A stretch of DNA of 64,000 bases, taken from assembly GCF_030063305.1 (NCBI RefSeq), contig NZ_JASISV010000001.1:744001-808000 (forward strand), read 5' to 3'. Under the pieces are notes generated by a model, which ran no database searches, had not been told where the DNA came from, and saw only the letters and a program-made list of their open reading frames with translations. Within the stretch, counting starts at the first letter, position 1. Each line of letters opens with the position of its first letter. The DNA comes from Salinibacterium sp. G-O1 (GTDB lineage Bacteria > Actinomycetota > Actinomycetes > Actinomycetales > Microbacteriaceae). Below, piece by piece: positions 59,841-64,000 of the stretch. The position numbers and the translations under genes are program-made.

Positions 59841-62774
59841 TCATGCGCTGCCGCTGGTAAAGGTGCTGTGAAAGTAGTCGAACAGAGCTGGACTGACAGC
59901 TTCTTCGAACCCCAGATGCATCCTCACGACCGAGAGTGGCTTCCCGTCACTAGCAGGCATCGTTGTTTGTTCTGCATCCGCGGAGCGGGCTCGGCCCAAA
60001 TAATAGAAGTCGCTACCTTCGGCATCCGACTTCTTCGCGAAGACGTGCAGTTCTACGGCGTTCTGGACGATGGGCTGCACGTCGGGACTCGTGAGGGTGC
60101 GCTTGCTCTTTGAATACCAGAGGAAGGTACGAGGATCCAGCAATTCGTCCTCGTACGCTGTGCTGGCGGCCACTTCGTCCGATTTGTGAAGCGTGACAAA
60201 GATCGGACACGTGAAGGTCGACTGATCCACTCTGTATCCGTAGATCGTCGAGTACATGTTCGACGACCAGTTGAGTAGTCTGCTCGCGTCTTTTCGGGAG
60301 TATTGCATTCCCGGCGTGAACGGGCGGTCCGGGAGGTAGCGTTCGTTGATGAGGGCTAACCCTGTTTCGATCGCGTCGTCCACATTCCGCTGGAACGCCG
60401 CAGAATCGCGATAGTAGCGCGCGAATGTGTCGTCCAGGCGCGCACCTCCTTCGGCGTCGGCATAGGCGAGCCGGTCTATCCTAAATTGATGTTTTTCCGA
60501 GGCAGTATTGAAACTGAGCGCAAGACTTCGGATGGCGCTACTGACGGTTGAGTCGGACACTTGCAGTCCCGACCTGGACAACTCGTCGACGATCGACTCC
60601 CGGCTTTGAGTACCGCCGCTGATGAGCAGTTTTAGAAGAGCGAGTTCATGAGGGCGCTTAGCGGTGAGCAACTCCCTGGTGATGACTGAAAGGTAACTTG
60701 ATTGATCTGCGGATAGCCCCGACTCCTCTTTGAACAATTTGGAGACCAGCAGCGGGTAGTTACCGACTTTCGTAGCCAGAATTATCGGGTCCACCGTGTC
60801 GAAGCGCACGAAGTCGAGGAGCATCGGCGTCCGACCAACACGGTTTCGGATTGTTTCTATTGCCGCCTTGAGATTTTGAAAACTGTCGATCTTGGAGCTT
60901 GCTAGGGAACGGAGCACTCTCTCCTGGGCGACCCGGTCGAATCTCACGCTCGAAAGTCCGGCGATCACGCCTACCTCCTGAGCGGCAATGAGATTCTTTC
61001 GGAGCGATTCCTTATTCAAGGACTGGTCGCCGAAGAGCGCGATGGGAATGAGGTAGTTGTTCTCGTAATTGCCGATGAAATCGATGACGACGAGATATCT
61101 CTTACCCGGCGCATGTCGGAGGCCCCTACCAAGTTGTTGAACGAAGACAATGCTGGACTGGGTTTGGCGCAGCATCACAACCTGGTTGATGGACGGTATG
61201 TCGACGCCTTCATTGAAAATGTCGACGGTGAGGATGTAGTCGAGCTCTCCTTCCTCTAGGCGTTCGACGGCACGCTCGCGATCCTCAATCGAGTCATCAC
61301 CAGTTAGCGCGATGGTTCGCAACTGGGAGCCATGAAGGACGCGACGGTTTAGCTCGGAGGAGAGTTCGTGTGCTTCTTCTTTCCTGCTGCAGAAGATCAG
61401 ACCTCGGGGTGCTACGCCCGCTTGTCCATAAGTGTTCAGCGCACCCAGGATGTGCTCAACCCGTTCCGCGCCGACAAGTCGAGCGAGAGAGGTGCCGTCG
61501 GTCGTGGTTTGGCCATCCACGAAAGTTACGTCGGCCACCCCGTAGTAATGGAAGGGCGACAACATGTTGAGTTCCAAGGCGCTCTTGAGTCTGATCTCAT
61601 AGGGCACGTTGTAGTCAAAAAGCTCAAATATGTTGACGCCGTCAGGGCGCTCGGGGGTGGCAGTCATTCCAAGAAGGAACTTCGGCCGGAAGTGATTAAG
61701 TACACGATCAAAACTCGCGGCGCCGGCACGGTGCACCTCATCAATGAGCACGTAATCGAACGCGTCCGGGTCTAGCTGATCAAGCACGTGTTGCTGCGAG
61801 AGGGTCTGGATCGTGGCGAACACGAACTGGCGATCACTTTGCCGAGTCGAGCCAGCAAGCTTTCCGAAGCGGTCGCTGTCGCCCCCGAGCACGCGGCGGA
61901 ATTCATGAATCGCACGGTCCAAAATCTGCTCACGGTGGGCGACGAAGAGCATTCGTTTCGGACCGACGGATCGCACGTCGAGCGCGGACAGAATTGTCTT
62001 GCCCGTCCCGGTTGCAGAAACAATAAGTGCTCTGCTCTTGCCTGTTTCGCGCACTCGCGCAATCGCCGTAAGCGCTTCTGTTTGCATCGCATTGGGCACA
62101 ATTTCCGTAGCTGGGGGCTCCGGGGCGCTGAGAGATTCGCGTCGAGCCCGATGCCGGGCAGTGTGCCGATTCGTTGTGACCGGAGGTGTGAATCGCGTGG
62201 CGTAGTCGTCGATCCACTGCTGCGTAAGTGGGCTGGATTGATCGAGTCCCTCATCAAGGAGGTTCGTGAACTGCTCCGCGAGATCGCTATCCCGCGAGGC
62301 AGAAACGCGTAAGTTCCATTCGTGATTGCGGGTAATTGCCCCGGCGGTCAAGTTCGCACTGCCGAGGATGGCGGTGACGCTTTGCGGGCGGTGAAAGACG
62401 TATCCTTTCGCGTGGAACGCCGGGTCCGAATGCATCCGAACGTCCACACCCAGCCGATTAAGGTTCAGCAGTTCCGCGAGCGCCTGGGGCGAATTGAAAC
62501 CTAGATAGTCAGACGTAATGATCCGACCGACCCCGGCGAAGTCGATCAAATCCTGCTTCAGCAGCGCGATCGCCGCCGTTGAGACGAACGCCACCGAAAA
62601 CGTGAACGACGAGGCGTGTTTGAGCTCGTAGCGTAGGGCTCGTAGCACTGAGTCATTGGCAGAGTTCAACACGAGGTTGGGTTGAAACTCCCGCGGCGAG
62701 TGCACGCTCTTGTCGAGATATCCGAAGCCGATGTCTCGCCCGAAGGGCTCGAGATCGTTGAGATCGACGGTCAC
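59841..62774 (-). CDS. PLD-nuclease / DEAD-like helicase / DUF3427 fusion protein
   Basis: A 977-aa protein. Residues about 50-170 are a phospholipase-D-like nuclease domain with HAKGY near 121 and GSANLT near 139. A superfamily 2 helicase follows: Walker A SATGTGKT near 253, DEVH near 345, motif III GMTATPERPD and motif VI QLGRGLRHAPGK. The C-terminal 300 residues match DUF3427. The start is GTG at 62774, overlapping the Nudix stop as GTGA, so the two are coupled. Codon use is less G/C-biased than neighbours, hinting at transfer. Related helicase-PLD proteins act in anti-phage defence and repair; the role here is inferred. Confidence 0.88.
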   Translation of the reverse strand: MTVDLNDLEPFGRDIGFGYLDKSVHSPREFQPNLVLNSANDSVLRALRYELKHASSFTFSVAFVSTAAIALLKQDLIDFAGVGRIITSDYLGFNSPQALAELLNLNRLGVDVRMHSDPAFHAKGYVFHRPQSVTAILGSANLTAGAITRNHEWNLRVSASRDSDLAEQFTNLLDEGLDQSSPLTQQWIDDYATRFTPPVTTNRHTARHRARRESLSAPEPPATEIVPNAMQTEALTAIARVRETGKSRALIVSATGTGKTILSALDVRSVGPKRMLFVAHREQILDRAIHEFRRVLGGDSDRFGKLAGSTRQSDRQFVFATIQTLSQQHVLDQLDPDAFDYVLIDEVHRAGAASFDRVLNHFRPKFLLGMTATPERPDGVNIFELFDYNVPYEIRLKSALELNMLSPFHYYGVADVTFVDGQTTTDGTSLARLVGAERVEHILGALNTYGQAGVAPRGLIFCSRKEEAHELSSELNRRVLHGSQLRTIALTGDDSIEDRERAVERLEEGELDYILTVDIFNEGVDIPSINQVVMLRQTQSSIVFVQQLGRGLRHAPGKRYLVVIDFIGNYENNYLIPIALFGDQSLNKESLRKNLIAAQEVGVIAGLSSVRFDRVAQERVLRSLASSKIDSFQNLKAAIETIRNRVGRTPMLLDFVRFDTVDPIILATKVGNYPLLVSKLFKEESGLSADQSSYLSVITRELLTAKRPHELALLKLLISGGTQSRESIVDELSRSGLQVSDSTVSSAIRSLALSFNTASEKHQFRIDRLAYADAEGGARLDDTFARYYRDSAAFQRNVDDAIETGLALINERYLPDRPFTPGMQYSRKDASRLLNWSSNMYSTIYGYRVDQSTFTCPIFVTLHKSDEVAASTAYEDELLDPRTFLWYSKSKRTLTSPDVQPIVQNAVELHVFAKKSDAEGSDFYYLGRARSADAEQTTMPASDGKPLSVVRMHLGFEEAVSPALFDYFHSTFTSGSA

Positions 62775-63172
62775 AGGGAATTGAACTTGAGCTCGATAGC
62801 CTCGACGGCAGGGAGGTCGGCGGGTGCCCATTCCAGGGAACGAAGTTGGGGCGGCAGTAGCCAGACCATATCCTCGTGTTCCGAAAGCTCGGGATCGCCT
62901 TCCTCCAACTCGCAGTAGAAAGTCGTGAGCGTCACGATCCCAAAGTCATATTCGTGGGTTGTGACGGCGACTTCCTCCCCGACAGCTACCGTGCAACCAA
63001 GCTCTTCCACGATCTCGCGCTGGAGGGCCTCACAAGGTGATTCGCCCACCTCAATTTTTCCGCCGGGGAACTCCCACATCCCTGCAAGGGCACCGGCTTG
63101 GCCGCGTTGAGCGCAGAGGATCCGACCGTCGCGCACAACTACCGCTCCGACGACGTCAATCTGCTTTTTCAC
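62771..63172 (-). CDS. Nudix hydrolase, MutT-like (deoxy)nucleoside triphosphate pyrophosphohydrolase
   Basis: A 133-aa Nudix enzyme. The Nudix box G-x5-E-x7-REUxEExGU is complete: it starts GGKIEVGESP and ends REIVEELGC. FEPGGK-like entry WEFPGGK and the C-terminal WLLPPQL segment match the CTP/dNTP pyrophosphohydrolase branch. GTG at 63172 follows AAAAGGAG; the frame is open upstream to 63229. It overlaps the helicase start by four bases. In several bacteria Nudix and DUF3427 helicases are neighbours, which suggests a joint function. Confidence 0.9.
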   Translation of the reverse strand: MKKQIDVVGAVVVRDGRILCAQRGQAGALAGMWEFPGGKIEVGESPCEALQREIVEELGCTVAVGEEVAVTTHEYDFGIVTLTTFYCELEEGDPELSEHEDMVWLLPPQLRSLEWAPADLPAVEAIELKFNSL

Positions 63173-63266
63173 GTGGCTCCTTTTTGCATATGAGGGCAGG
63201 GCGAGAAACATGGCCTGTTCTCCGGCCAAGACTATTGGGGGTCACGCGAATAGCCAGTGAACCGCG

Positions 63267-64000
63267 CTAGGCCACCCCCACCCACAGTCCATCCCGCGCT
63301 CGCGTCATCGCGACATACAGTTCTCGCCGATCGAGCTCGCGCTTCTCGAAGTCCGAGGTGTCCACGTTGCCGGTGGCTGCGTCGAGAAGATGTCTTGCTG
63401 TGCGCACGACCAGTACCTGCTTGAACTCCAGACCTTTGGCGCGTTTGATGGTACCCACCTTCACCGCGTCGCTGGATCGTCCGGTGTACTCGAGAAGGTC
63501 GATTGACCGCACCCCTGCGGCGGCGAGGGCCTTCGACATCTCCTGCGCGACCCAGTTGGTTGCGGCCAGTACTCCGATATCTCCGGGGGATGTGCCCGAG
63601 TCGATCAGGTGGCGAACATGCTGCACGACCGAAACGTCGTGGAGTGACCGTGATACGAAGTGGTTAATCGATGGCGTTGCGCCATGACGAACGATTTCAC
63701 CGTGCTTATCGCCAATGGAGCTGGCGCCCTCAATGTCCAGAAATTCATCACCGGCCACGAGGCTCGCTGCGAACTCCACAATCTCGCAGGTGTTGCGGTA
63801 ATTCTTCGTCATGATGACGCCGCGACCAGCGATGGAGACGTTCGCCTCCGCCAGCGTGAACCCACCCGGGTAGATAGTTTGTTGCCCGTCGCCGATGAGA
63901 TTCAGGCCGTCTGGCCGGTCCCCGACAATGGAATGAAGCATCCGGATCATCGCGCATGTTAGATCTTGTGCTTCGTCGATCACGATCGCGCTGTATCCCT
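63267..64000 (-). CDS. UvrD/Rep-like superfamily 1 helicase, C-terminal part (5' end outside window)
   Basis: The frame is open from the window edge to the stop at 63267, so the N-terminus is missing. Visible motifs: Walker B VIDEAQDL, motif III GDGQQTIY, motif IV NYRNTCEIVEF, motif V IKRAKGLEFKQV and motif VI YVAMTRAR. This is the C-terminal half of a UvrD-like helicase. It is on the same strand as the Nudix-helicase pair, 94 bases upstream of the Nudix start. The N-terminus could carry a nuclease (for example NERD) domain, but that cannot be seen here. Confidence 0.88.
   Translation of the reverse strand, partial: GYSAIVIDEAQDLTCAMIRMLHSIVGDRPDGLNLIGDGQQTIYPGGFTLAEANVSIAGRGVIMTKNYRNTCEIVEFAASLVAGDEFLDIEGASSIGDKHGEIVRHGATPSINHFVSRSLHDVSVVQHVRHLIDSGTSPGDIGVLAATNWVAQEMSKALAAAGVRSIDLLEYTGRSSDAVKVGTIKRAKGLEFKQVLVVRTARHLLDAATGNVDTSDFEKRELDRRELYVAMTRARDGLWVGVA

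What the first reader, a model, noticed from the sequence alone, without database searches (positions are those of the whole stretch)
59841..64000. Candidate defence or repair island: UvrD-like helicase, Nudix hydrolase and PLD-helicase-DUF3427
Three same-strand genes for nucleic-acid enzymes, with the Nudix and helicase genes coupled by GTGA. Codon use is less G/C-rich than in the rest of the window. A PLD nuclease fused to an SF2 helicase recalls known anti-phage systems (for example Mokosh type II), but the DUF3427 tail and the Nudix partner are different. A nucleotide-cleaving Nudix enzyme beside a nuclease-helicase could sense or degrade modified nucleotides.
Basis: partly seen in the sequence, partly recalled or inferred. 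Interest (0 to 1): 0.78.

Follow-up and report, generated by a model that had tools for sequence, protein, structure and literature searches.

The report
Restriction enzyme with nucleotide-pool guard
The region encodes a known kind of enzyme that cuts DNA carrying modified cytosine, coupled to a small enzyme that probably destroys the matching modified building block, so that the cell does not mark its own DNA for cutting; the pairing is widespread and suggests a way that such enzymes avoid self-harm.

Summary
It is a full-length SauUSI-type (type IV, modified-cytosine-dependent) restriction enzyme (720 bits to structure 7clg) with conserved catalytic and 5mC-pocket residues. [quoted passage not shown] The NERD-UvrD helicase is not core. 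The interest lies in the pairing. The Nudix is adjacent in 69 of the 80 best SauUSI loci. In 81 Staphylococcus genomes: 33 both, 1 DUF3427 only, 3 Nudix only, 44 neither. In 301 lactobacillus-family genomes all 52 with this Nudix have DUF3427. Of 630 testable enzyme positions, the one most associated with having a Nudix is the predicted modified-base-reading residue (window D876): Asp/Glu copies nearly always have it, Asn copies mostly lack it. Where Asn copies keep a Nudix, its base-contact residue has often changed too (12 of 19; 0 of 108 with Asp/Glu). Best reading: the Nudix clears the cognate modified dNTP, preventing self-restriction. The mechanism is inferred, not shown. Adjacency alone is already in print.

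The parts
59841..62774 (-). SauUSI-type restriction enzyme, 977 aa from GTG 62774: PLD nuclease, SF2 ATPase, coupler, C-terminal SRA-type modified-base reader (Pfam DUF3427)
   Evidence: PADLOC mREase_IV PDLC03658 E 7.5e-218 over 28-987 of 996; phmmer 720 bits to 7clg_A over 8-968; Pfam
62412..62414 (-). Predicted PLD catalytic His121 (SauUSI His119)
   Evidence: H in 14 of 14 rows of alignment A1 and in all 79 rows of the larger alignment; H119A is the inactive nuclease mutant used in PMC7913695 (section 25)
61995..62018 (-). Walker A motif SATGTGKT (Lys259)
   Evidence: K in 14 of 14
60147..60149 (-). Asp876 = SauUSI Asp858, predicted reader of the flipped 5mC
   Evidence: alignments; role modelled in PMC7913695 section 25; first of 630 columns for association with Nudix presence
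62771..62774 (-). GTGA overlap joining Nudix stop and SauUSI-like start
62771..63172 (-). Nudix hydrolase (PDC-S07 family, NudG/MutT2-like), likely start GTG 63172 with AAAGGAG upstream; ORF extends to 63229
   Evidence: PDLC04899 E 2.9e-51; NUDIX Pfam; start site and Nudix box
62816..62818 (-). Nudix base-contact Asp (NudG Asp118; MutT has Asn119)
   Evidence: alignment; the role of this position in NudG and MutT is recalled
63267..64000 (-). NERD-UvrD helicase gene (complete 688 aa to window-equivalent 65333); neighbour, not core of the module
   Evidence: matched in 1 of 80 SauUSI loci and in L063

Best explanation
A two-gene restriction module. The SauUSI-type enzyme reads a modified base in DNA (Asp type: 5-methyl/5-hydroxymethylcytosine) with its SRA domain, translocates and cuts. 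Such an enzyme has no modification that protects the host: the host must keep the base out of its own DNA. Any modified dNTP that reaches the pool (recycled from digested foreign DNA, or made by a phage) could be built into the chromosome and make it a target. The Nudix, translationally coupled here by GTGA, hydrolyses that modified dNTP (5-methyl-dCTP/5-hydroxymethyl-dCTP) to the monophosphate. Inferred: Nudix substrate, direction of benefit (host protection), and all in-vivo steps.
For: Identity. Solved relatives of the Nudix: 5x1x 138 bits, NudG 2rrk 89, MutT2 5zrc 88; the 5x1x stretch printed reads identical, by eye, to the Nudix next to SauUSI in an S. aureus record. NudG substrates CTP, dCTP, 5-methyl-dCTP: reference title in PMC5389931 and rate quoted in PMC3744803 (passages). 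Linkage: 69 of 80 loci within 1 kb; 10 of 10 strong DUF3427 genomes of the window's family; Staphylococcus 33 both, 1 DUF3427 only (35-bit fragment), 3 Nudix only, 44 neither, Fisher 4e-18. Of the Asp/Glu-type copies scored, only L158, L169 and L173 lack an adjacent Nudix, and those three genomes hold one of 176-182 bits elsewhere. Reader residue first of 630 columns; 11 independent pairs: 7.3 same way, 0 opposite, median p 0.016. Eight lactobacillus-family genomes with an Asp and an Asn copy at separate places have the Nudix at the Asp copy only, none the reverse, 3 at both, 3 are tandems. Nudix base-contact residue: Asp in 108 of 108 with Asp/Glu readers, non-Asp in 12 of 19 with Asn readers. 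No PF00145 (C5-methylase) match in the window's genome.
Against: No biochemistry. NCBIfam's NudG model is not met (113 bits, cut-off 156). NudG also takes dCTP and CTP, so the target may be canonical; and MutT, with Asn at the base-contact position, has weak 5-methyl-dCTP activity too (PMC3744803 passages), so Asn does not exclude that substrate. The role of Asp858 is a model in the source paper. Leaving the SRA domain out of the tree, or using the lactobacillus family alone, weakens the independent-pair test to median p 0.06 (5.0-5.5 same, 0 opposite). The Nudix-residue co-switch is few events (4 and 3 changes) and not significant by independent pairs; the pair ranks 421 of 101,118 in an all-pairs scan; 7 of 19 Asn-type pairs keep Asp. 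Nudix of this family is common without SauUSI: 37 of 47 carriers in the window's family have no strong DUF3427 match (one of them, G170, has SauUSI cut by a contig end and one, G092, a distant DUF3427 protein). Three of the 10 SauUSI genomes (G078, G136, G186) do have PF00145 matches. Whether bacteria re-phosphorylate 5-methyl-dCMP well is unclear (recall).
Confidence: 0.6

Rival explanations
1. Pincer on the phage pool: the Nudix destroys 5hm-dCTP/5m-dCTP made by an infecting phage, so that unmodified phage DNA falls to other systems while SauUSI cuts modified DNA.
For: Same substrate prediction as the best explanation; same linkage and residue data.
Against: It would remove the mark that its own partner needs. 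Asp/Glu-type SauUSI is almost never found without the Nudix, while the Nudix is often found without SauUSI in the window's family and sometimes in Staphylococcus, an asymmetry expected of a protector; in the lactobacillus family the Nudix was not found without DUF3427, which is neutral here.
Confidence: 0.18
2. dCTP depletion: the Nudix is a dCTP/CTP hydrolase that starves phage replication, as dCTP deaminase and dGTPase defences do (recall), and simply travels with the restriction gene.
For: NudG acts on CTP and dCTP (PMC5389931 reference title).
Against: Does not predict that Nudix presence follows the modified-base-reading residue of the partner.
Confidence: 0.1
3. Incidental housekeeping MutT: a pool-cleaning gene that sits beside a restriction gene by shared mobility, without functional coupling.
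For: 37 of 47 Nudix-bearing genomes of the family lack a strong DUF3427 match; three same-genus relatives keep a 69-73% identical Nudix near a RecQ-like gene without SauUSI.
Against: 69 of 80 loci across phyla and two arrangements (58 upstream, 11 downstream); in 205 lactobacillus-family genomes without DUF3427 none has the Nudix at E 1e-20; reader-residue dependence.
Confidence: 0.08
4. One reading: UvrD helicase, Nudix and PLD-helicase act together as a new defence or repair system.
For: Same strand; same three genes in G170 (L063: 71% SauUSI over the part on the contig, 67% Nudix, 66% UvrD).
Against: UvrD-like gene matched in 1 of 80 SauUSI loci, there on the other strand, while the Nudix is in 69.
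Confidence: 0.04

Closest known systems
SauUSI (type IV restriction enzyme; PDB 7clg; PADLOC mREase_IV)
   Same: Full-length homology, PLD-ATPase-coupler-SRA order, His/Lys of HxK, Walker Lys, pocket Tyr/Phe/Asp/Trp
   Different: SauUSI Met829 is Tyr and Glu126 is His in the window protein. PMC7913695 does not mention a Nudix (term search, 0 hits), although one lies before SauUSI in an S. aureus record
NudG/Orf135 and mycobacterial MutT2 (dCTP/5-methyl-dCTP diphosphatases; MutT2 activity and species recalled)
   Same: Nudix box and base-contact Asp118
   Different: Below the NudG model cut-off; nudG of E. coli K-12 has no restriction gene in the 4 kb shown around it
PADLOC PDC-S07 (candidate single-gene defence)
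   Same: Nudix matches it, E 2.9e-51; in S. suis co-localised with type IV RM in 23 of 23 occurrences (PMC12813430 passages)
   Different: Not a stand-alone system here: its presence tracks the restriction enzyme's base reader
SauUSI-MutT neighbours in Streptococcus (PMC7641849 Fig. 9 legend)
   Same: Adjacency noted as small 'DNA repair' MutT homologues (section 11)
   Different: No mechanism, substrate or reader-residue link in the section and passages read

Membership tests
SauUSI-type type IV restriction enzyme | PLD nuclease with HxK motif | tested here: met
   His121, Lys123 invariant in 14 of 14; the motif's later Glu126 is His in the window and variable in the 14
SauUSI-type type IV restriction enzyme | SF2 ATPase with Walker A | tested here: met
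   SATGTGKT at 253; ResIII and Helicase_C
SauUSI-type type IV restriction enzyme | C-terminal SRA reader with 5mC pocket (Tyr831, Phe841, Asp858, Trp868) | tested here: met
   Tyr847, Phe859, Asp876, Trp886; DUF3427 over cut-off. By sequence only, no structure was predicted
SauUSI-type type IV restriction enzyme | Cuts only 5mC/5hmC DNA with ATP | not testable with these tools
   needs enzyme assay
NudG (NCBIfam NF007834) | Score over curated cut-off | tested here: not met
   113.1 bits, cut-off 156
NudG/MutT2-like cytosine Nudix | Nudix box and Asp at base-contact position | tested here: met
NudG/MutT2-like cytosine Nudix | Hydrolyses 5-methyl-dCTP | not testable with these tools
   needs enzyme assay
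PADLOC PDC-S07 | Match to PDLC04899 | tested here: met
   E 2.9e-51, profile positions 4-129 of 135
Mokosh type II | Match of the PLD-helicase protein to a Mokosh model | tested here: inconclusive
   no Mokosh model among the 20 PADLOC families at E 0.001; not checked whether the library holds one
Gabija (GajB UvrD helicase) | GajB together with GajA | tested here: inconclusive
   the cut UvrD part hits GajB models only distantly (68 bits); PADLOC was not run on the full 688 aa and no search for GajA was made

The most novel reading that the evidence does not exclude
Nucleotide-pool immunity: a modification-dependent restriction enzyme is made safe by a partner that destroys the triphosphate of the very base it reads, and the two base-reading residues change together. 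Asp/Asp pairs handle modified cytosine; Asn/Asn or Asn/Ser pairs and solitary Asn-type enzymes of lactobacilli read a different base (for example a modified uracil), for which the cytosine Nudix is useless or must be retuned. The partner's residue would then tell the specificity of uncharacterised type IV enzymes.
Probability: 0.45. Interest if true: 0.88.

Novelty: new variant of a known kind. Interest (0 to 1): 0.72.

Why it matters
Type IV enzymes are generally treated as single-gene systems that need no self-protection beyond the absence of a methylase (recall). If the reading is right, many of them, apparently including SauUSI itself, a major barrier to gene transfer in S. aureus, carry a metabolic antidote. 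That would explain a PADLOC candidate (PDC-S07), warn that studying SauUSI alone may miss half of the system, give a residue code for the modified base that is read, and link dNTP sanitation to restriction in a testable way.

Tried and rejected
New PLD-helicase fusion: rejected by full-length matches to SauUSI. UvrD as core: rejected. A general link of this Nudix to C5-cytosine methyltransferases looked promising in two same-genus loci (L061, L062), but a control found a PF00145 gene within 6 kb of the Nudix in only those 2 of 47 genomes, so it is not claimed. MazG-like second hydrolase beside SauUSI: in 3 of 80 loci (L111 directly downstream, L185 53 bases downstream, L129 2.6 kb upstream) plus two plasmid loci; a minor variant. 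Reader-residue co-switch in the Nudix: suggestive only, too few independent events. All-pairs covariation: the pair ranks 421 of 101,118.

Seven of the 11 loci without adjacent Nudix bear names of one family (Lactobacillaceae). The lactobacillus table has 109 rows, one copy twice (L217 and L334 are the same gene of G577; Asn, no adjacent Nudix); recounted as 108 copies. Near-identical rows (6 at 99%) were removed in a recount without change of conclusion. Rows left unscored: L143, L175 (SauUSI at or near a contig end), L203, L333 (fragments); L209 dropped as the same copy as L182; six weak or fragment DUF3427 hits (G427, G473, G586, second hits of G431, G481, G548) were not fetched, so 93 of 96 genomes are in the table; tandem second copies of L299, L302, L304 left out of the residue-pair count; L223 has no Nudix sequence in that count. 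For about 10 rows cut short at the enzyme's start the gap to the Nudix was estimated from the DUF3427 position ('near'). No structure prediction and no fold search was run.
Full report
WHAT IS THERE. The window ends inside a same-strand gene row: a NERD-UvrD helicase (688 aa, running to window-equivalent 65333), a Nudix hydrolase and a 977-aa PLD-helicase-DUF3427 protein that starts at a GTG sharing GTGA with the Nudix stop. The Nudix most likely starts at GTG 63172, behind AAAGGAG. G+C and GC3 are clearly lower than in nearby genes. The window is C1:744001-808000 of a 3.14-Mb genome.

IDENTITY. The large protein matches PADLOC's type IV restriction enzyme model PDLC03658 over its whole length (E 7.5e-218) and the solved structure of SauUSI, 7clg, with 720 bits over residues 8-968. 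The SauUSI paper (PMC7913695; section 25 read, passages) describes a PLD nuclease with HxK at 119, an SF2 ATPase, a coupler and an SRA-type reader in which Tyr831, Phe841, Ile842 and Trp868 line the pocket, Tyr831 is placed against the methyl group and Asp858 is placed to bond the flipped cytosine (a model). In the window protein these are His121/Lys123, Tyr847, Phe859, Val860, Trp886 and Asp876; Met829 is Tyr845 and Glu126 is His128. By every sequence test made it is a SauUSI-type enzyme; cleavage was not tested.

THE NUDIX. It matches PADLOC candidate PDC-S07 (E 2.9e-51). Its best NCBIfam model is NudG, below cut-off (113 against 156 bits). Best solved relatives are 5x1x (138 bits), NudG 2rrk (89) and MutT2 5zrc (88). 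The 5x1x stretch printed reads the same as the Nudix that lies directly before SauUSI in an S. aureus record (compared by eye); a paper search for 5X1X with MutT and S. aureus found none. [quoted passage not shown] At the base-contact position NudG has Asp118 and MutT Asn119 (alignment; roles recalled); the window Nudix has Asp.

LINKAGE. In 199 genomes of the window's family DUF3427 occurs in 14, 10 of them strong, and all 10 have the Nudix next to it on the same strand (2.07-2.26 kb from Nudix to the DUF3427 domain). The other 11 were read by eye. Of their 10 genomes that could be searched, 4 hold a strong Nudix elsewhere (167-182 bits) and 6 have at most a 53-bit match. In 81 genomes of the genus of Staphylococcus simulans (L176) the table is 33 both, 1 DUF3427 only (a 35-bit fragment), 3 Nudix only, 44 neither; all 33 lie on the same strand 2.06-2.46 kb from the DUF3427 hit. 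In G273 the DUF3427 stretches carry stops while the Nudix frame is open; in G217 both carry stops. Plasmid-collection records of lactobacilli and Hymenobacter show the same pair.

Comparing nine SauUSI positions across the loci, the seven lactobacillus-named loci without Nudix (six genomes without a strong match, and L175, whose genome is not held) all had Asn where SauUSI has Asp858, against 59 Asp, 6 Glu and 2 Asn among linked rows with a letter there and Asp in the 4 with an unlinked Nudix. I then took a mostly new sample: 301 genomes of the family of a Lactobacillus (G208), taken to be Lactobacillaceae. DUF3427 is in 96, the Nudix (E 1e-20) in 52, and all 52 are within the 96. Of 108 distinct readable SauUSI copies, 33 have Asp and 75 Asn. 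Nudix lies adjacent or near in 32 of 33 Asp copies (the exception, L203, is cut by a contig start) and in 21 of 75 Asn copies, three of which are the second gene of a Nudix-SauUSI(Asp)-SauUSI(Asn) tandem. Eight genomes carry an Asp and an Asn copy at different places with the Nudix only at the Asp copy; none has the reverse; three have a Nudix at both. Over the 197 rows of the joint set, scored Asp/Glu copies lacking an adjacent Nudix are L158, L169 and L173 only, and each of these genomes has a strong Nudix elsewhere.

CONTROLS. With the whole SRA domain left out it is 5.0-5.4 same, 0 opposite, median p 0.06; with the lactobacillus family alone 5.5, 0 and 0.06. Thinning rows at 99, 90 and 75% identity keeps the association.

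CO-SWITCH. In 128 linked pairs the Nudix base-contact residue is Asp in all 108 with an Asp or Glu reader, and Asn (7), Ser (5) or Asp (7) in the 19 with an Asn reader; one reader has a gap there. But this rests on about 4 and 3 changes on the tree, independent pairs are not significant, and the pair ranks 421 of 101,118 overall. In 38 Nudix loci of the window's family that lie away from SauUSI the residue is Asp in 34, Glu in 1 and unread in 3. I treat the co-switch as a lead.

MECHANISM. The simplest account: an enzyme that cuts DNA carrying 5mC/5hmC makes it dangerous for the cell to build those bases into its own DNA. The triphosphates can arise from recycled foreign DNA or from phage metabolism (established for phages with modified bases; recall). 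A Nudix that returns them to monophosphates protects the host. This explains why modified-cytosine readers are hardly ever found without it, why the Nudix can stand alone in some groups, and why Asn-type readers, which may read something else, often lack it or carry an altered one. The chemistry (Asp can only accept the cytosine amino group, Asn could face uracil-type bases as well as cytosine) is inference and does not prove a switch. The window's genome has no PF00145 match, as expected, but 3 of the 10 SauUSI genomes of the family do.

IN PRINT. Adjacency of MutT homologues to SauUSI homologues in Streptococcus is in a figure legend of PMC7641849 (section 11), and PDC-S07 with type IV RM in S. 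suis, 23 of 23, is in PMC12813430 (passages). A 2025 review (PMC12707154, passages) raises nucleotide-pool monitoring as a way of phage detection. The two hits and one (PMC8565348) were seen as listings only. The library lacks most subscription papers.

Noticed in passing
L060, L061, L062 (same-genus genomes G082, G197, G145): A 69-73% identical Nudix lies between Fpg/Lhr-like and RecQ-like genes (named by eye) with different defence-like neighbours: HNH_2 nuclease; C5-methyltransferase plus HNH_2; GmrSD_N, NaeI and C5-methyltransferase. The RecQ-like gene at window-equivalent 65555-67630 suggests a hotspot.
   Followed up: partly
L104:3885-5348 (Paenibacillus polymyxa plasmid NZ_CP010270.1): One protein joins an HNH nuclease domain (303-353) directly to a Nudix domain (361-477) related to this one.
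   Followed up: no
L103:4938-9938 (Lactobacillus amylolyticus plasmid NZ_CP020458.1): A related Nudix (43% identity) stands before an Eco57I-type restriction-modification protein and a restriction endonuclease, without SauUSI in the stretch.
   Followed up: no
L101, L102, L020, L111, L185: SauUSI row extended by a MazG-like nucleotide pyrophosphohydrolase and, in L101 and L020, a Schlafen-group-3 helicase protein.
   Followed up: partly
L299, L302, L304 (lactobacillus family): Tandem Nudix - SauUSI (Asp reader) - SauUSI (Asn reader).
   Followed up: no
L106 (Fusobacterium vincentii): SauUSI homologue with Asn reader and no Nudix match in the about 4 kb on each side, in line with the pattern outside lactobacilli.
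   Followed up: partly
L025 (G027): Asn reader with an adjacent Nudix that keeps Asp, against the pattern.
   Followed up: no
   Followed up: no
L029 (G092): A distant, 1048-aa DUF3427 protein also has a PDC-S07 Nudix close upstream on the same strand.
   Followed up: no
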